21,144 nucleotides of DNA from IMG/VR virus record IMGVR_UViG_3300033141_004953, positions 1-21,144 of that record. The stretch is one strand, 5' to 3'. Numbering within the stretch: the stretch's first letter is position 1; every line of letters begins with the position of its first letter. The notes below the pieces were generated by a model. It did no database searches and had not been told where the DNA came from. It saw nothing but the letters and a program-made list of their open reading frames with translations. Both the position numbers and the translations under genes were made by a program. This document shows, in pieces, positions 1-21,144 of this stretch. Source of the DNA: a virus.

Positions 1-1553
1 AAAGCACAGTTCATTAATGCTGCTGCTGATTTTTCTTTTATAAACTCTGTTCCCATCATCCAAAGTCCACGACCTGCAGGAGAAAATTTAAAATTAAAAA
101 TTTTATCATACATTATCTGCGCTGAGTTGTGAACAACAAACCCACCAGACATTGTAAATTGCTTAATATCTTTAACTTCTATATCAAAAGTTTCTGTCAA
201 TCTTCCATCTTCTATATCTACTACCTCTATTGGGAGAGCAGAAAGAGATATTTCTTTTTCTTTAAAAATTCTATAAGTAGTTACTGACTTATATTTATCA
301 CATCCTATTTGATTACCAAAATAATTTCTTATAGTATCAATCTTAAATGAATGAGCCTGTTTAGAACCCCTATCATAGTCTTTTTCACATTTATATTTTG
401 TACTCTGATTGCCTATAATTTTTTTAAATCTTTTCAAATTTTCATAATCTTTTAAACATACTTGGAAAATATTATTAGGGTTTTGTTGAATTTTTTTTAT
501 ATAAGCACAGATACCTAGAGAATTGTATAACAATTTTACTTGTTTAGCAAAGTTTTCATATATAGTACAAACAGCTATAAGAGGTCTATTTTTATAACTT
601 CCATCAGCATCAAAAAGACCTGCTAAATAAGACGCTCTGATATTTCTTGTAGATGATATTATCCAATCTGGAATATTTATCTCTTTATTAGGTTGTTTTA
701 TATTATTAAAAAAATATTTTGATAGGTCATTAGAAAATACTTTCACCACCCAAGTATCATAATTATATACTTTAGACTTATACCCAAACATCCGAAAAGC
801 GTCCTTAGCTCTTTCTAAAGCACTGTTTAAATTCTTTCTGTTTTTTTCTATCCTCAAACGAATAGTACCATTAATAGGCTTGGCTTTATTGCGTCCAAAA
901 ACCCTATATCTTTTACCTGGAATTTGTACATAACCATCACCATGTATTTCTCCAATTAACCAAGCAATTTTTTCATCTAGTTTTGGTACATGGATATTAT
1001 CACTTATAGGTAATTTAGTTTCTTTTCCTTCATAACCATTTGCATCAAAGACTAATCTATCTCCTATTCTTATTTCAGATGCTTTTTTAAATTTCCAAGA
1101 TGTTATACTATCCTCGAATATGGCTACTTTATGATTAGGAGTACACTCAATATTACCAAAACAAGTTTTTAATATTATCGTTTTTTGTATCCCTTGATTA
1201 TATACATTAGATACTTCTGATACTCCAGCTAGAGTTTGTATTATATCCCCTATTCTAATATCTTCAATAGGCTTTACACCTTCTTTTAAATGAATTAATG
1301 TTCCTTTGGGCAAACATTTTTGAGCTTTCCATGGTTTCCATGGCAATCTTAACTTCTCACAATGGTCTTTTTGTGTGTTGTAAACCCCTTCTACAACTCT
1401 TTTTATGGTTTCCCACCATTGTTCATTTCTATTTTCTTTTTCAATATAGCGTGAATAGGTACGATAATAAACAAATTCTCCCAAAGCATCCCAGTTTGGT
1501 TTTTTATTTTGATATTTAGCTAAAAATGCTTCTGTTAAATGAAATGTTAACAT
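1..1553 (-). CDS. nrdJ: Class II (adenosylcobalamin-dependent) ribonucleoside-triphosphate reductase, intein-split, 3' part outside window
   Basis: This enzyme reduces ribonucleotides to deoxyribonucleotides with cobalamin as radical source, supplying dNTPs for phage replication. Seen: the N-extein (79 residues) has LGEFVYYRTYSRY and NEQWWETIKRVVEG. After a 397-residue intein, the C-extein continues SAQIMYDKIFNF, then GRGLWMMGT and LMNCA before the window edge. All of these are hallmarks of the monomeric Lactobacillus-type RTPR. With the intein removed, the Cys of MNCA falls at residue 119, the position of one of the paired active-site cysteines in the Lactobacillus leichmannii enzyme. The start ATG at 1553 has a modest AAAAGGGA site upstream. 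It is the last visible gene of the leftward recombination block. The catalytic core lies beyond base 1, so activity cannot be judged. Confidence 0.9.
   Translation of the reverse strand, partial: MLTFHLTEAFLAKYQNKKPNWDALGEFVYYRTYSRYIEKENRNEQWWETIKRVVEGVYNTQKDHCEKLRLPWKPWKAQKCLPKGTLIHLKEGVKPIEDIRIGDIIQTLAGVSEVSNVYNQGIQKTIILKTCFGNIECTPNHKVAIFEDSITSWKFKKASEIRIGDRLVFDANGYEGKETKLPISDNIHVPKLDEKIAWLIGEIHGDGYVQIPGKRYRVFGRNKAKPINGTIRLRIEKNRKNLNSALERAKDAFRMFGYKSKVYNYDTWVVKVFSNDLSKYFFNNIKQPNKEINIPDWIISSTRNIRASYLAGLFDADGSYKNRPLIAVCTIYENFAKQVKLLYNSLGICAYIKKIQQNPNNIFQVCLKDYENLKRFKKIIGNQSTKYKCEKDYDRGSKQAHSFKIDTIRNYFGNQIGCDKYKSVTTYRIFKEKEISLSALPIEVVDIEDGRLTETFDIEVKDIKQFTMSGGFVVHNSAQIMYDKIFNFKFSPAGRGLWMMGTEFIKEKSAAALMNCA
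126..1316 (-). other. LAGLIDADG homing-endonuclease intein inside the ribonucleotide reductase
   Basis: This is an in-frame insertion of 397 codons between Lys79 and Ser80 of the reductase. Seen: it begins with Cys (CLPKGTLIHL), has a block B TPNH motif, and ends VVHN followed by Ser as the +1 residue. These are the residues needed for protein splicing: N-terminal Cys, block B His, penultimate His, terminal Asn and a nucleophilic +1 Ser. Two LAGLIDADG-type motifs lie between them, LIGEIHGDGY (around 936-975) and LAGLFDADGS (around 600-630), both keeping the catalytic Asp. It therefore looks both splicing-competent and endonuclease-competent. The flanking exteins join into an uninterrupted RTPR sequence, which fixes the boundaries. 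Confidence 0.93.
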
Positions 1554-13440: not shown

Positions 13441-15519
13441 ATGAACTTAAATTTTAAAAATTTATATTTATTTGCAGAATATCTAAAAGGGAACGAAAGT
13501 CAAGAAATTAAACAAAAATTTGAAGGATTGACTGGCGATGAGCTGGAAAAAAGTCTAAAAATTATTCTTAATAATCCAAAAATCCCTGAAAGTATAAAGA
13601 AAAATTTTCCTAAAACAAGTTGGCGAATAAATTATCGTAGAAGACCACCTACTATGGAAGAATTTCTTACTGATAAATGGATTGGACCAACAGGATTAAC
13701 AATATATGACCATGTAAAAAAAGCATTGATTGAGTTTTGGGGTCAGAGTTATTATACCCCTGGAATAACAGATATTTCTGGAGCTACTAAAAAATATCGA
13801 CATTTAATATTAGCATCTTCAATCGGATGGGGTAAAAGTTTAGCTTCAGCAATTAGTGCTTTATATATTATAGTATGTCTTAGTTTAATGCGAAATCCTA
13901 AAAATTATTTTGGATTATCTCAAGCAACTACCATAGTAATAGCTCTTATTTCTTTTAGTTTGAAGAAAGCTGAACAGATTTTATTACAACCATTCTTTCA
14001 AATTCTAACTACATCTCCGCGTTTTAAGAGAGTAATGCGAGAGGAAAAATTAGAAGAACGACAAAAAGAATTTCCAGATAAGATTATTTGGACAAGTGCT
14101 GGTAGAGTAGGTTCAATTCAATTTGTAAATGATTTACATATTTTAATTGCTTCTGAACCAGCACATTTGTTAGGATTAACTTTAATGTGCGCTGTCTTTT
14201 CTGAAATAAGTTTTTTTATTGAAAGAGGTATTAGTCCAGAGACAATTTGGCGTATTTATAATGATGCTAAAGGTAGAGTTTATAGTAGATTTGGTACTGA
14301 ATATTTTGCTTCTACTATACTTGATTCAAGTCCAAATGATATGGAATTATCTCCAATTGATAAATATATTTTTGGTGGAGCAGCTTATAAAGACCAGACT
14401 AATTATATTGTAACTTCTACCCATTGGGATGTATTTCCTGAAAAATATCCTGAATGGCAAAAAACAAAAAAAACGTTTACAGTATATCGAGGTTCCGCTA
14501 CAAAACCACCAAGACTTATTGATAATGAAGACGAATTAAAAAATTATAATTCTGCTGAAATATATAAAGTACCTATTGATATTCATCAACATTTTATTGA
14601 TAATTTAAAAAAGAGTATTAAAGACTATTGTGGATATCCAGGTGGTTCAACTGCAAAATTATTTGAAAGTTTTGATGTTATTGAAAATATGTTTACAGTA
14701 CAATTGAAAAATATTTATACATCAATTTATGCTCCAGCCGATAAAGCACCTGAATATTTAATTTGGAATCAAATTAAAAATGATTTTTTTATAGAAATTG
14801 AAAAAGGCCATTTTGTATTTTATCGAAATCCAAATGAAAACAGATATATTCATTGTGATCTTAGTGAATCTCATGATGTTGCTGGAATAGGTTGTGTTCA
14901 TCCAGAACTTAATAAAAATGGTAATATGATTGTTATTGTTGATTTTTCAATAGCGATTGTTCCACGAAATAGTAAAATAAATTTAGATGCTATTGCATGC
15001 TTTATTATTGATTTAATACAATTAGGTAATATGAGAATTGCAAAGATTAGCTCTGACCGTTTTCAAAGTTCTCCACTTATTCAGAGGTTACAAAGATTGG
15101 ATTATAATATTGATAAATTTTCTGTTGATAGAACAAAAGAACCCTATTATGTTTTGGCATCATGGATTAAAAATGGTCGAATTAAATCTGGTAGAAATAT
15201 TTTTTTAAAGAATAATTTAAAATCCTTACAAGAAGTAGTAAGCGCCAAGGGTCATAGCAAAATTGACCATGTAATTGTATCATCACCAGTTTATGATGAT
15301 GGAGCTAATTGGGAAACTTCTTTAATGGGTTTAGGACAAAAAGATGTATCAGATGGAGTTTGTGGTGCTGTAAATCATTGTATTTCTGATTTTAAAGGGG
15401 TTCCAAAATATCAGTGGTATGATGATGAAAAAAATATGAAGTTAACAAATAAGAAAATTAAAACAGCTATATTAGAAAATCTTCATAATGATTTTAGTTT
15501 TCAACTTGATAAATCCTAA
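13441..15519 (+). CDS. terL: Terminase large subunit
   Basis: 692 residues. This is the ATP-driven DNA packaging motor and headful/cohesive-end nuclease. Seen: Walker A-type SSIGWGKS (about 126-133), a helical ATPase core, a Walker B-like strand ending LMCAVFSEIS (catalytic Glu near 251), and a C-terminal RNase H-like nuclease with Asp residues in HCDLSESHD (about 473), SSDRFQSS (about 538) and KDVSDGVCGAVNH (about 635). Full length for the family. The ATG at 13441 has no ribosome site and follows an AT box; the next in-frame ATG (residue 72) would cut conserved sequence (MEEFLTDKWIGP begins there). It is the first gene after the terminator. A small terminase subunit is not evident nearby. 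Confidence 0.92.
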   Translation: MNLNFKNLYLFAEYLKGNESQEIKQKFEGLTGDELEKSLKIILNNPKIPESIKKNFPKTSWRINYRRRPPTMEEFLTDKWIGPTGLTIYDHVKKALIEFWGQSYYTPGITDISGATKKYRHLILASSIGWGKSLASAISALYIIVCLSLMRNPKNYFGLSQATTIVIALISFSLKKAEQILLQPFFQILTTSPRFKRVMREEKLEERQKEFPDKIIWTSAGRVGSIQFVNDLHILIASEPAHLLGLTLMCAVFSEISFFIERGISPETIWRIYNDAKGRVYSRFGTEYFASTILDSSPNDMELSPIDKYIFGGAAYKDQTNYIVTSTHWDVFPEKYPEWQKTKKTFTVYRGSATKPPRLIDNEDELKNYNSAEIYKVPIDIHQHFIDNLKKSIKDYCGYPGGSTAKLFESFDVIENMFTVQLKNIYTSIYAPADKAPEYLIWNQIKNDFFIEIEKGHFVFYRNPNENRYIHCDLSESHDVAGIGCVHPELNKNGNMIVIVDFSIAIVPRNSKINLDAIACFIIDLIQLGNMRIAKISSDRFQSSPLIQRLQRLDYNIDKFSVDRTKEPYYVLASWIKNGRIKSGRNIFLKNNLKSLQEVVSAKGHSKIDHVIVSSPVYDDGANWETSLMGLGQKDVSDGVCGAVNHCISDFKGVPKYQWYDDEKNMKLTNKKIKTAILENLHNDFSFQLDKS

Positions 15520-15540: not shown

Positions 15541-16365
15541 GTGACTATAAAGAAAATTAGTAAGAGAGATGCACTTTTATTTATCCATAAATATCATTAT
15601 AGTAAGATAATGCCAAGACTTACTAAGTATTATCTAGGATTTATTCAGAAAAATACTTTAGTAGGTGTTGTTACATTGGGATGGGGAACTCAGCCTAAAC
15701 ACACAATACAAAAAATATTCTATTCACATAAGAATAAAATTGATACAAATAATTATTTAGAAATAGGTAAATTATGTTTTCTTCCTTCTAAAAATAAAAG
15801 TAATTTTGGCAGTATGGCAATAGCTTTATTAATAAAATGGATTAAGAGTAATCTTAAGATAGATTTTCTTTATACTTTAGCAGATGGAATTGTAGGAAAA
15901 TGTGGTTATATTTACCAAGCAAGTAATTTTAGATATATTGGTAAATTTAAAACCAGCATTTATATTGATAGAAAAACTAAAGAAAAAATTCATCCTAGAA
16001 GTTCTAAAACTTTATGTACTGAAAATGCTTTATATGAGAACAAAAATAAAGTTTTTTGGCTTACTCATAAATTTTGTGAGTACAAAGGAATTGACAAAAT
16101 TAATGGATTAATGTTTCGATATATATATCCACTTAATTATAAAGCTCGTAAAATATTAGATAGTTATATAGAATATCAACATTTGGCAAATCCAAAAGAT
16201 AAAGATTTGTTTTTTGAAAAAAGAGTAGCAGATAAAACATTTAAAAAAATAGAACAACCAACATTCAATAAAAATGTTTTTAGGTATAATTATCAGAAAT
16301 ATAATGAAGAATCTAAATTAGATTTTAATTTTATTAGAAATAGCGAGGTTAGGATAAATGGCTAA
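15541..16365 (+). CDS. Mom-like DNA adenine hypermodification protein
   Basis: 274 residues. Phage Mu Mom converts adenine to N6-carbamoylmethyl-adenine, shielding DNA from restriction; the fold is GNAT-like. Seen: FIHKYHYSK near the N-terminus (HY about 19-20), YLGFIQKNTLVGVVTLG, then YLEIGKLCFLPSKNKSNFGS, YTLADGIVGKCGYIYQASNF and RYIGKF, in the same order as Mom family motifs (HYSH; L-E-L-x-R; pkN; yaD; G-x-iYqAsN). A basic 80-residue C-terminal tail is extra or divergent. It starts at GTG, 21 bases after terL, with only an AT-rich stretch and no Shine-Dalgarno site. The next small gene overlaps its end by eight bases. The exact modification in this phage is unknown. Confidence 0.75.
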   Translation: MTIKKISKRDALLFIHKYHYSKIMPRLTKYYLGFIQKNTLVGVVTLGWGTQPKHTIQKIFYSHKNKIDTNNYLEIGKLCFLPSKNKSNFGSMAIALLIKWIKSNLKIDFLYTLADGIVGKCGYIYQASNFRYIGKFKTSIYIDRKTKEKIHPRSSKTLCTENALYENKNKVFWLTHKFCEYKGIDKINGLMFRYIYPLNYKARKILDSYIEYQHLANPKDKDLFFEKRVADKTFKKIEQPTFNKNVFRYNYQKYNEESKLDFNFIRNSEVRING

Positions 16366-17652: not shown

Positions 17653-18962
17653 TATCATTGATCACAAATGAAAAACAAACATTAATGTGCTTGATTGAAA
17701 AACCAGAGTTAATTTTGCAATTTGAAAAAAATTACTTTATATCTGGAATAGGAAAAGATATATTTGATATTTTACATTATTTTTATAATAATGAAAAACC
17801 TATTCAGCCAACAATCAATAATATTATTAATGAGGGAAATCGAAAAAATGAAGCGATAACGAAAGATTTAATAACAAATCTTTTTAAAGAAGAATATACT
17901 TTAGAGGATTTTGAATATTATCAAAAAAGATTAAAAGAAGATTATATAAAAAATAAGTTTTCGGATAAAACCTTAAAAGAGTTATTAATAGTTCTTGAAC
18001 AAAAAGGGGATTTAGATACAAATAAATTAAGTTTATTGATTGAAGAATTACAGATAGGTATGGAAGAACTTGAAAACAAAAAAAATAATATACAGGATGG
18101 TTTTAATTTATTAAAAGATTATCAAGTAATTCTAGAGAAAAAGCAAAAAGGAGAGTATTTTTATAGTACTGGTGATTCATATTTAGATAGTTATTTAGTT
18201 GAGGGATTTATGCCAGGATATATTACTACATTATTTTCAAACACTGGAGTCGGAAAGTCTATGTATGCTCTCAATCTTATTAATAAACAAATTAATAAAT
18301 ATATTCCTAATTTATATGTTTCACTTGAACTTGGTCCAATTACTACAGCGGAACGATTACTCTCTATGAGAAATAGAATTCCAACTACAGTTTTTTCTGG
18401 TAGAAATCAAAATGATGATTTAAAAAAATTAGCTTCTAATACAGTTGAAAAAGAATTGGTTCACTTTGAGAATTATCCATATTTTGCTATAGTACAAAAA
18501 CCATCAGTTTCAATTACAGAATTAGAACATTATATTAGGATATTTAAAAAAAGAATAAATGTTAATTATTGTGTTGTTGTTGTCGATTTATTGACTATGC
18601 TATCTGATTTTTTAGGACAAGGTAAAGCAGAGATTTATGAAAATTGTATGAATAAATTACATTATCTTGTGCGAAAAGAAAATGTTCATCTCTTTGGTAT
18701 TGTTCAAGCAAGGCGAGATAACAGTGGTACTAAATATTCTGATATTAAAAGTTTAAATAAATTAAAACCAACACTTGATACAATTAAATCTAGTTCTGCT
18801 ATAGCTGAAAGAAGTAGAATTGTTTTATCTGCTTTTAGATTAAAATACTATGCTGAAATGTTTTTTCCTGAATCACCAGAATTGGATACAATGGAAGACA
18901 TACTCGAAATTGCAATTTTAAAACAAAGTTCAGGAGCTTTAGCAAATCTTAAATATTTTTAA
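17649..18962 (+). CDS. DnaB-like replicative helicase, C-terminus truncated by a duplication
   Basis: 437 residues. This hexameric helicase unwinds DNA at the phage fork. Seen: an N-terminal helical domain with a linker to about 165, then a RecA-like core with SNTGVGKS (Walker A, about 197-204), LYVSLELGP (H1a), VVVVDLLTML (Walker B, about 309-318), LFGIVQARR (motif H3) and IKSSSAIAERSRIVLS (H4), ending ILKQSSGALANLKYF. A 37-bp tandem duplication at the end shifts the frame to TAA. Without it the protein would run 21 residues further (YQGETSNIFKYVESEEYA and onwards) to a TGA at 19051-19053. The last core strand is therefore lost or misread. It overlaps the loader gene's stop. A primase partner is not seen. 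Confidence 0.9.
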   Translation: MISLITNEKQTLMCLIEKPELILQFEKNYFISGIGKDIFDILHYFYNNEKPIQPTINNIINEGNRKNEAITKDLITNLFKEEYTLEDFEYYQKRLKEDYIKNKFSDKTLKELLIVLEQKGDLDTNKLSLLIEELQIGMEELENKKNNIQDGFNLLKDYQVILEKKQKGEYFYSTGDSYLDSYLVEGFMPGYITTLFSNTGVGKSMYALNLINKQINKYIPNLYVSLELGPITTAERLLSMRNRIPTTVFSGRNQNDDLKKLASNTVEKELVHFENYPYFAIVQKPSVSITELEHYIRIFKKRINVNYCVVVVDLLTMLSDFLGQGKAEIYENCMNKLHYLVRKENVHLFGIVQARRDNSGTKYSDIKSLNKLKPTLDTIKSSSAIAERSRIVLSAFRLKYYAEMFFPESPELDTMEDILEIAILKQSSGALANLKYF

Positions 18963-18998
18963 AAGTTCAGGAGCTTTAGCAAATCTTAAATATTTTTA
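18925..18998 (+). repeat. Perfect 37-bp tandem duplication at the end of dnaB
   Basis: Units 18925-18961 and 18962-18998 are identical and directly abut (core GTTCAGGAGCTTTAGCAAAT). The second copy carries the codons that continue DnaB in another frame to the TGA at 19051. Because 37 is not a multiple of three, the duplication truncates the annotated protein. Confidence 0.97.
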
Positions 18999-19049
18999 TC
19001 AAGGAGAAACTTCTAATATTTTTAAATATGTTGAATCTGAAGAATACGC

Positions 19050-19100: not shown

Positions 19101-20072
19101 ATGGAAGAGTATAAAGAAATGGATATACAAGAAAAAGAGAAATCAGAAGAAAATAAAGCTTTAAAAAGAAAATATGTAAAGCATGCGAATGATACTAAAA
19201 AAAAGAAATCTAATGCTTTTCTTTCTAAATTTCAACAAGCTTGGTTTCAAACAATTCTAGTTGTTTTTATAATTTTCTTTTTTGCGATTTCAATCACATC
19301 AATAGTATTAATTTTTAAAAAGATAAATTCTAATTTAAAAGATGAATTAGATAATATGAAAGTTGAATATACTGAGAGAATTTCTAAACTTGAAAAGGAA
19401 AAAGAAGCTGTAATTGAAACAGCATTTTCGGTAAAAGATGAACTATTGAGCAGACATGAACTATTGAGCAGACATTATGTACAGGAAAGTAAACAGTTTG
19501 AAGATTTTATGCTAAATGGTACAAAGATTATTACTATTGAATATGAACTTTCTAAAACTTCAAAAAAAAATAGACTTACTCAAAAACAACTCAGAAATTA
19601 TTTAGCTATTACATTTGAAGGTTCTAGAATTGTTGGGTTAGACCCATATTTAGCTTTAGCAATAGATAAAGTTGAATCAGGATTTAATAAATATGCTAAG
19701 TCACCTGTTGGAGCTTTGGGAATTTGTCAATTTATGCCAGGAACTGCAAGATTAATAGCAAATTCGCATACAAATTTTAGTCAATTACAAGTAAGTGCAT
19801 ATGCTAGAGAAAAGTTATTTGACCCTTCTTATAGTAAAAAAATTCAGTTACGTTTTTTGAAATATTTATTAGAAGAATTTGAAGGAAGAATTCAATGGGC
19901 ATTGTTTGCTTATAACTATGGTCCAGATTATGTTTATCGATTTGCATGGAAAGAGGGAGAAGTTATTTTTAAAGATTTAACAGAAGAACAACAAAAGTAT
20001 GCTACAGATATTTTGAATTTTTATAATAAGATTACTATGACTTCAGAAGAGAATCACGATGTTAGTGAATAG
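19101..20072 (+). CDS. Membrane-anchored lytic transglycosylase (SLT domain)
   Basis: 323 residues. This muramidase-type enzyme cleaves peptidoglycan during entry or lysis. Seen: a cytoplasmic Lys/Glu-rich N-terminus, one membrane span (about 49-72, ILVVFIIFFFAISITSIVL), a charged coiled-coil stalk (75-110), a directly repeated ELLSRH pair (114-125) and a C-terminal SLT domain. The domain has LALAIDKVESGFNKYA (catalytic Glu about 192), GALGICQFMPGTA and FAYNYGPDYV. The single span anchors the SLT domain outside the membrane. It has its own strong promoter and ribosome site. Whether it is a virion-associated or lysis protein cannot be decided here. Confidence 0.9.
   Translation: MEEYKEMDIQEKEKSEENKALKRKYVKHANDTKKKKSNAFLSKFQQAWFQTILVVFIIFFFAISITSIVLIFKKINSNLKDELDNMKVEYTERISKLEKEKEAVIETAFSVKDELLSRHELLSRHYVQESKQFEDFMLNGTKIITIEYELSKTSKKNRLTQKQLRNYLAITFEGSRIVGLDPYLALAIDKVESGFNKYAKSPVGALGICQFMPGTARLIANSHTNFSQLQVSAYAREKLFDPSYSKKIQLRFLKYLLEEFEGRIQWALFAYNYGPDYVYRFAWKEGEVIFKDLTEEQQKYATDILNFYNKITMTSEENHDVSE
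19438..19475 (+). repeat. 18-bp tandem repeat in the transglycosylase
   Basis: An 18-base unit (ATGAACTATTGAGCAGAC) is perfectly repeated (19438-19455 and 19456-19473, with two further matching bases), giving ELLSRH twice in frame in the stalk. As 18 is a multiple of three, the gene stays open. Confidence 0.95.
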
Positions 20073-20952: not shown

Positions 20953-20955
20953 TAT

Positions 20956-21028
20956 GGGATTGAAGCTTAACAGGTTAAGCCACCGGCTTTTAACCGGTAG
21001 ACAGCAGGTTCGAGTCCTGTCAATCCCA
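20956..21028 (+). tRNA. tRNA-Lys (TTT anticodon)
   Basis: A 73-base cloverleaf: acceptor GGGATTG/CAATCCC, D arm GCTT/AAGC, anticodon stem ACCGG/CCGGT around CTTTTAA (anticodon TTT), T arm GCAGG-TTCGAGT-CCTGT, discriminator A. CCA is not encoded. It is followed after two bases by the tmRNA-like RNA. Confidence 0.95.
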
Positions 21029-21030
21029 AA

Positions 21031-21108
21031 GGGGATGAATTGGATTTGACTTGAGATTAAAACCAAAGTGTTTTCTCAAGGACGTGGGTTCGAATCCCAC
21101 CATCTCCA
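21031..21108 (+). ncRNA. Miniature tmRNA-like RNA (tRNA-like domain without tag/pseudoknot region)
   Basis: 78 bases. The 5' end GGGGATGAATTGGATTTGAC matches the tmRNA 5' consensus (GGGGxTG...TGGATTCGAC). The 3' end GGACGTGGGTTCGAATCCCA plus CCATCTCCA matches the tmRNA 3' consensus. The acceptor stem GGGGATG/CATCTCC has G3-U70 and an A73 discriminator, the alanine identity set, and the T arm is GTGGG-TTCGAAT-CCCAC. Like tmRNA it has no normal D stem. Instead of 250-300 bases with a tag ORF and pseudoknots, a helix CTTGAGA/TCTCAAG (21050-21056 with 21074-21080) closes over 17 bases that can extend the stem (AAAC/GTTT). There is no anticodon arm and no encoded CCA. It sits two bases after tRNA-Lys. 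A degraded tmRNA or a noncanonical tRNA are the alternatives. Confidence 0.75.
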
Positions 21109-21114
21109 AAAAAT

Positions 21115-21144
21115 GCTCCTGTTATCTAATTGGAAGGATGCCAG
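21115..21144 (+). tRNA. Partial tRNA, 5' half only (window edge)
   Basis: GCTCCTG acceptor strand, TT at positions 8-9, D arm ATCT-AATTGGAA-GGAT with A14 and G18G19, then the first bases of the anticodon stem (CCAG) before the window ends. The amino acid cannot be told because the anticodon lies outside. Confidence 0.75.

What the first reader, a model, noticed from the sequence alone, without database searches (positions are those of the whole stretch)
21031..21108. A 78-base 'tagless' tmRNA in a phage tRNA array
Both ends carry tmRNA consensus sequence: the 5' end with TGGATTTGAC, and the 3' end with GGACGTGGGTTCGAATCC and CATCTCCA. G3-U70 and A73 are kept, so alanyl-tRNA synthetase could charge it. 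Yet the mRNA-like domain, resume codon, tag and pseudoknots are absent, replaced by a short capped helix. I know of full-length tmRNA genes in phages, but not of this minimal form. Such an RNA might bind SmpB, EF-Tu or stalled ribosomes without providing a tag, acting as a decoy for trans-translation or a source of Ala. These roles are inference.
Basis: partly seen in the sequence, partly recalled or inferred. Interest (0 to 1): 0.85.

Follow-up and report, generated by a model that had tools for sequence, protein, structure and literature searches.

The report
Tagless mini-tmRNA family in phages
The 78-base RNA is the tRNA-like end of the bacterial ribosome-rescue RNA (tmRNA) with its tag-coding part replaced by a small capped helix, and it belongs to a large, mostly unannotated family of phage RNAs that probably take the place of the host's rescue RNA during infection.

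Summary
Window 21031-21108 matches the Rfam tmRNA model end to end (68.8 bits, E 3.7e-25) with about 300 internal positions missing; no cloverleaf or anticodon is present. It is no assembly accident: a second contig carries the identical 78-mer inside an 18-tRNA array. In IMG/VR, 291 contigs match the short form; 256 keep the complete tRNA-like domain (167 different sequences). Their helix P2 covaries strongly, and they share a capped inner hairpin (AAAGCC-NNNN-GGA or, as in the window, CC-AAAG-UG). G3-U70 is kept in 166 of 167 (the exception is a register error) and A73 in all, while neighbouring acceptor pairs change freely, so selection for charging with alanine is strong. None of 50 records tested encodes SmpB; one of 50 also carries a full-length tmRNA. 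Nine cultured phages (eight Streptomyces, one Stenotrophomonas) have it, never annotated as tmRNA at that spot. The kind is not unprecedented: phage DS6A has a tmRNA reduced to the tRNA-like domain, and such molecules inhibit E. coli tmRNA. New here are the size and diversity of the phage family, the conserved cap and the retained alanine identity. Most likely mechanism (inferred): an alanylated SmpB/EF-Tu-borne decoy that enters stalled ribosomes and blocks tagging.

The parts
21031..21108 (+). mini-tmRNA (tRNA-like domain of tmRNA with the mRNA-like domain replaced by a capped P2), position 1 to A73
   Evidence: RF00023 68.8 bits, E 3.7e-25; family model R1 58.6 bits, E 7.7e-12
21031..21037 (+). 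acceptor stem 5' strand GGGGAUG, contains G3
   Evidence: 7/7 pairs with 21101-21107; G3-U70
21042..21050 (+). D-loop motif GGATTTGAC (SmpB contact region in tmRNA)
   Evidence: alignment; the same motif in the family
21050..21056 (+). P2 helix 5' strand CTTGAGA, pairs with 21074-21080
   Evidence: P2 covaries in 100 relatives
21057..21073 (+). cap of P2, TTAAAACCAAAGTGTTT, class II inner motif CC-AAAG-TG
   Evidence: class II motif in 12 of 167 unique sequences, shuffles mean 0.7, maximum 5
21074..21080 (+). P2 helix 3' strand TCTCAAG
21080..21083 (+). GGAC linker between P2 and T-arm (its first G is also the last P2 base)
21084..21100 (+). T-arm GTGGGTTCGAATCCCAC
   Evidence: T-stem 100% paired in 100 relatives, two of its five pairs with changes on both sides
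21101..21108 (+). acceptor stem 3' strand CATCTCC plus A73; no CCA encoded (followed by AAA)
20955..21029 (+). tRNA-Lys(TTT) directly upstream
   Evidence: ARAGORN, Rfam
21114..21144 (+). start of the next tRNA, cut by the contig end (complete as tRNA-Arg(TCG) in L003)

Best explanation
It is a phage mini-tmRNA: a tRNA-like domain with A73 and G3-U70 that the host processes like a tRNA, completes with CCA and charges with alanine; host SmpB and EF-Tu bind it and carry it to ribosomes stalled at the 3' end of an mRNA. Because it has no resume codon, tag or pseudoknots, it occupies the place of the host tmRNA (and may add one alanine) but cannot tag the nascent chain, so it blocks or diverts trans-translation during infection. 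Shown here: the sequence, the paired structure, the family, the retained alanine identity and the lack of a phage SmpB. Inferred: charging, SmpB/EF-Tu binding, ribosome entry and the effect on tagging.
For: Full-length RF00023 match with the interior deleted. 256 IMG/VR loci / 167 unique sequences of the same build, mean pairwise identity 69%, 97 clusters at 85%. Pairing 95.3% of cells, covariation score 0.656 versus 0.06-0.10 when slid. G3-U70 166/167 and A73 167/167 while pairs 4-69, 5-68 and 6-67 change on both sides. The same in relatives found through the loop motif, with no D-loop requirement. No SmpB in 50 records, so the host's is needed. [quoted passage not shown] a crystallised alanyl-TLD lacking the mRNA-like domain binds the stalled ribosome with SmpB and EF-Tu (PMC3968760, PMC8363625). 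In one lineage of 20 loci it lies about 100 nt upstream of the major capsid gene on the same strand, a place that would give high late expression (inference).
Against: The published inhibition did not need charging (PMC4131195), which makes the strict G3-U70 conservation unexplained by titration alone; the conserved cap has no assigned role; no expression or binding data; one record (L018's) carries both a mini and a full-length tmRNA, odd for a phage that only wants tagging off.
Confidence: 0.55

Rival explanations
1. Tag-free rescue: the charged mini-tmRNA enters stalled ribosomes with SmpB, takes the peptide and drives out the broken mRNA, and the peptidyl-mini-tmRNA is then released by drop-off or hydrolysis, so ribosomes are freed without degrading phage proteins.
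For: Same anatomy and G3-U70/A73 conservation; mitochondrial tmRNAs without a tag persist together with SmpB (PMC11915505); explains why charging is selected.
Against: Published TLD-only RNA inhibits tmRNA in E. coli; no release factor or hydrolase link was found next to the minis.
Confidence: 0.22
2. SmpB sponge: it only binds and titrates SmpB off the ribosome; charging is irrelevant.
For: Reported inhibition with or without chargeability (PMC4131195).
Against: G3-U70 and A73 are invariant in 166-167 of 167 sequences while neighbouring pairs drift; a sponge would not need them.
Confidence: 0.1
3. tRNA-like processing signal or attachment-site remnant: it punctuates a polycistronic mRNA, or is the ssrA core left from integration.
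For: Sits between prohead protease and capsid genes in one lineage and abuts a stop codon in another.
Against: Contexts differ between lineages; both acceptor strands and P2 covary; tyrosine integrase in only 7 of 50 records; real attachment sites hold only the 3' part of ssrA; processing needs neither G3-U70 nor the SmpB motifs.
Confidence: 0.06
4. Decayed tmRNA or an assembly deletion.
For: The window copy lies 36 bases from the contig end.
Against: Identical copy in L003 inside continuous sequence; 167 distinct covarying relatives; nine cultured phages.
Confidence: 0.01

Closest known systems
TLD-only tmRNA of mycobacteriophage DS6A (tmID 11587; Mao et al. 2009, cited in PMC4131195 and PMC11915505)
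   Same: Phage tmRNA consisting of little more than the tRNA-like domain; molecules of this kind inhibit E. coli tmRNA.
   Different: The only phage case the held papers name (the 2025 tmRNA database lists 79 phage tmRNAs, and 9 'standard, no CDS' forms from all sources). DS6A is not held in the collections, so whether it has the same cap could not be checked. Here 167 distinct sequences with a conserved cap.
Jakobid and other mitochondrial tmRNAs, and Mallomonadaceae plastid tmRNAs of about 65 bp, without a tag
   Same: tRNA-like domain kept, tag and pseudoknots lost.
   Different: Organellar, mostly permuted genes in mitochondria; not phage; no shared cap known.
Standard one-piece tmRNA (RF00023), including phage forms
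   Same: Acceptor stem, G3-U70, A73, D-loop GGNUUYGAC, GGAC, T-arm.
   Different: About 300 internal positions (mRNA-like domain, tag, pseudoknots) are missing.
Alanyl-TLD construct of the TLD-SmpB-EF-Tu ribosome crystal structure (PDB 4ABR/4ABS), and the UUCG-capped TLD fragment of the TLD-SmpB structure (2CZJ)
   Same: TLD with shortened P2; shows that such an RNA can bind SmpB, and with EF-Tu the stalled ribosome.
   Different: Man-made laboratory construct.

Membership tests
tmRNA (RF00023) | tRNA-like domain: acceptor stem, D-loop without D-stem, P2 base, T-arm | tested here: met
   68.8 bits, model ends 1 and 374 both reached
tmRNA (RF00023) | G3-U70 and A73 for AlaRS | tested here: met
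   Window and 166 of 167 (G3-U70) or 167 of 167 (A73) relatives
tmRNA (RF00023) | mRNA-like domain with resume codon, tag and stop | tested here: not met
   Insert of 29 nt between TTTGAC and GGAC; no ARAGORN tmRNA call
tmRNA (RF00023) | pseudoknots PK1-PK4 | tested here: not met
   No room in a 29-nt insert
TLD-only tmRNA (DS6A type) | little more than the tRNA-like domain | tested here: met
TLD-only tmRNA (DS6A type) | inhibits host trans-translation | not testable with these tools
   Reported for DS6A-like molecules (PMC4131195); needs experiment here
TLD-only tmRNA (DS6A type) | sequence or cap shared with DS6A | not tested
   DS6A record not in the held collections
tRNA (RF00005) | cloverleaf with D-stem and anticodon loop | tested here: not met
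   ARAGORN finds only tRNA-Gly and tRNA-Lys; Rfam prefers tmRNA
Permuted two-piece tmRNA (RF04321) | acceptor piece upstream of coding piece | tested here: not met
   23.0 bits against cut-off 47; no RF04321 match over cut-off in 50 related records

The most novel reading that the evidence does not exclude
A widespread class of phage counter-measures: alanine-charged, SmpB-borne mini-tmRNAs with a conserved capped hairpin that enter stalled ribosomes and replace host trans-translation by a phage-controlled, tag-free outcome, the cap making a specific contact on the ribosome or on a host factor.
Probability: 0.4. Interest if true: 0.88.

Novelty: new variant of a known kind. Interest (0 to 1): 0.73.

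Why it matters
Why phages carry tmRNA genes is an open question. A family of at least 256 viral loci and nine cultured phages, with alanine identity under strong selection and no tag, suggests that many phages act against, or reroute, ribosome rescue. Standard annotation misses it (ARAGORN reports nothing, or a wrong tmRNA or tRNA), and several carriers grow on laboratory Streptomyces strains, so the idea can be tested at once. It also offers natural minimal tRNA-like ligands for SmpB.

Tried and rejected
(1) Direct BLASTN of the window RNA against cultured phages: only neighbouring tRNAs matched. (2) T-arm hits in cultured phages as minis: those of Pseudomonas, Xanthomonas, Alcaligenes, Stenotrophomonas DLP_6, Sphingobium and S-CRM01 phages are permuted tmRNAs, Mx1 a standard one; a Mycobacterium prophage hit lies beside a tyrosine integrase and is probably an ssrA attachment core (inference). 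(3) Genome scan: 84 bacterial/archaeal matches, mostly 3' parts of ordinary tmRNAs or chance; 7 true minis (L172, L198, L205, L210, L218, L228, L248), L205 carrying the same sequence as a viral contig. (4) MAFFT alignment of all minis misaligned the acceptor stem, so a model was built from 15 equal-length members and used to align 100. (5) Second RNA piece (split tmRNA): no permuted match over cut-off in 50 records. (6) DS6A record: not held. (8) Resemblance of the AAAGCCGC motif to the region before the resume codon of E. coli tmRNA: noticed from memory, not tested.

Full report
WHAT IS THERE. Window 21031-21108 (+) reads GGGGATG AATTGGATTTGAC TTGAGATTAAAACCAAAGTGTTTTCTCAA GGAC GTGGGTTCGAATCCCAC CATCTCC A. 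The Rfam tmRNA model matches it from model position 1 to 374 with 68.8 bits (cut-off 47, E 3.7e-25) and a large internal deletion. ARAGORN reports tRNA-Gly and tRNA-Lys in the window but nothing here. All elements of the tmRNA tRNA-like domain are present: a 7-bp acceptor stem with G3-U70 and A73, the D-loop GGAUUUGAC without a D-stem, GGAC, and a 5-bp T-arm with UUCGAAU loop. The mRNA-like domain, resume codon, tag and pseudoknots are replaced by 29 nt that form P2 plus a small cap. CCA is not encoded. In isolation the free-energy minimum pairs D-loop with T-loop (-26.2 versus -25.5 kcal/mol for the tRNA-like form); this difference is too small to matter, and the family evidence decides.

NOT AN ARTEFACT. 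The record is a virus contig of 21,144 bases, so the feature sits near an end. L003, another contig, contains the identical 78-mer and reads on into a complete tRNA-Arg(TCG) in a locus with 18 tRNAs.

A LARGE FAMILY. Patterns fixing only TT(C/T)GAC and GGACNNGGGTTCRANTCC with a gap of 14-45 bases gave 250 (TTCGAC: 67 + 108 + 75) plus 41 (TTTGAC) contigs of IMG/VR. By my own estimate only a few would arise by chance. In 256 of these 291 loci the bases outside the pattern complete an acceptor stem (6 or 7 of 7 pairs) and T-stem; they comprise 167 different sequences, 69% identical on average, in 97 clusters at 85%. The D-loop, GGAC and T-loop were fixed by the search and are no evidence. Not fixed were: pair 3-70, G-U in 166 of 167 (the exception, L032, is a stem taken in the wrong register); A73 in 167 of 167; pairs 4-69, 5-68 and 6-67, which occur as GC, CG, UA, AU; C74 in 154 of 167 although a full CCA is encoded in only 44. 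P2 pairs outward from both ends of the insert without fitting: 122 of 167 have at least 5 contiguous pairs. On the model-fitted alignment of 100 sequences 95.3% of cells pair and the covariation score is 0.656 against 0.06-0.10 when partners are slid by 1-3 columns; 7 of 8 P2 pairs and all 4 pairs of the inner hairpin change on both sides (the alignment leans toward the structure).

A CONSERVED CAP. Inside P2 most members have an A-rich stretch followed by a 4-bp hairpin: AARN(N)CC-(4-7)-GG in 85 of 167 (shuffled loops: mean 3.4, maximum 9) and AAAGCC in 41 (mean 1.4, maximum 5). The window belongs to a smaller class, CC(A/G)AAG(U/C/A)G, 12 of 167 (mean 0.7, maximum 5). A scan anchored on AAAGCCGCACGCGGA and GGGTTCGA alone found 37 contigs. 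Those not seen before have diverged D-loops and GGAC, yet in those with an intact acceptor stem G3-U70 and A73 remain. So the cap is not a by-product of the first search pattern. Its role is unknown.

WHO HAS IT. Whole-record searches of 50 viral records: RF00023 above cut-off in 49; a full-length tmRNA as well in only one (L018's record, 77588-77979, 392 nt, 94.2 bits); no permuted tmRNA above cut-off; no SmpB; tyrosine integrase in 7. Most records are fragments, so absences are lower-grade evidence. In 208 of 256 loci ARAGORN calls no other tRNA in the fetched stretch, so this is not simply part of tRNA arrays. Cultured phages: Streptomyces phages BRock, GiJojo, LuckySocke, Alone3, pSt2308, Riptide, Shaeky and Tomas, and Stenotrophomonas virus Jojan60 (model R1 55.8-97.1 bits); none of these is annotated as tmRNA at that place. 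Seven of 84,980 bacterial and archaeal genomes had a true mini by this pattern, including the Prochlorococcus record L205 whose sequence equals a viral contig's. Contexts differ: in 20 loci the RNA lies upstream of the major capsid gene (PF05065), usually about 100 nt, with the prohead protease (PF04586) upstream in 13 of them; in 11 loci the stop codon of the upstream gene ends at or next to its first base; others lie elsewhere.

MECHANISM. Shown: the anatomy, its conservation and the lack of phage SmpB. From established knowledge: G3-U70 is the alanyl-tRNA synthetase identity element; SmpB binds the tRNA-like domain and substitutes for the missing anticodon half; an alanyl-TLD lacking the mRNA-like domain was crystallised on the stalled ribosome with SmpB and EF-Tu without major distortion (PMC3968760, PMC8363625, PMC3985003); TLD-only RNA strongly inhibits tmRNA (PMC4131195). 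Inferred: the mini-tmRNA is charged, enters stalled ribosomes and, having no resume codon, prevents tagging. Inhibition alone was reported not to need charging; the strict alanine identity therefore argues that the natural function goes through the ribosome, either as a charged decoy (my first choice, 0.55) or as tag-free rescue (0.22), rather than as a mere SmpB sponge (0.10).

NOVELTY. A tmRNA consisting of the tRNA-like domain was known from one phage (DS6A), some mitochondria and two plastids; the 2025 tmRNA database of 97,179 sequences lists 9 'standard, no CDS' forms from all sources (PMC11915505). Five text searches found no report of a broad phage family; the library holds open-licence papers only. 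The family's extent, its cap, its alanine identity and its capsid-operon placement appear to be new.

Noticed in passing
window 15541-16365 (+): Encodes a Mom family protein (PF25680, E 7.4e-51), a phage DNA-modification enzyme, downstream of a large-terminase-like gene (13441-15519).
   Followed up: partly
window 3-1553 (-): Ribonucleotide reductase alpha-domain gene interrupted by an intein with a LAGLIDADG homing endonuclease.
   Followed up: no
window 18930-19000 and 19437-19476: Short direct duplications (TTCAGGAGCTTTAGCAAATCTTAAATATTTTT twice at the end of the DnaB-like gene; GAACTATTGAGCAGACAT twice in the SLT-domain gene); recent duplications or assembly errors.
   Followed up: no
L018's record (IMGVR_UViG_3300025362_000004), 46486-46567 and 77588-77979: One 123.6-kb phage contig carries both a mini-tmRNA and a full-length tmRNA.
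   Followed up: partly
20 loci, e.g. L010, L022, L050, L317: The mini-tmRNA lies between the prohead protease and major capsid genes, usually about 100 nt before the capsid start, on the same strand.
   Followed up: partly
L012, L029, L126, L128, L133 and relatives: The mini-tmRNA starts at or next to the last base of the stop codon of an upstream gene of unknown family (about 390-420 aa).
   Followed up: no
L251-L254, L412, L414, L416: Unannotated tmRNAs in cultured phages: permuted in Pseudomonas PaMx31, Xanthomonas Rb1 and X1, Alcaligenes QDWS595, Stenotrophomonas DLP_6 and Synechococcus S-CRM01; standard in Myxococcus Mx1 (overlapped there by a 'Hef-like endonuclease' annotation).
   Followed up: partly
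L002 5916-6012 (-): Pistol ribozyme (RF02679, 50.7 bits) in the same phage contig as a mini-tmRNA.
   Followed up: no
L041, L053, L298, L302, L320: Mini-tmRNAs with longer inserts (about 38-43 nt) that do not share the usual cap.
   Followed up: no
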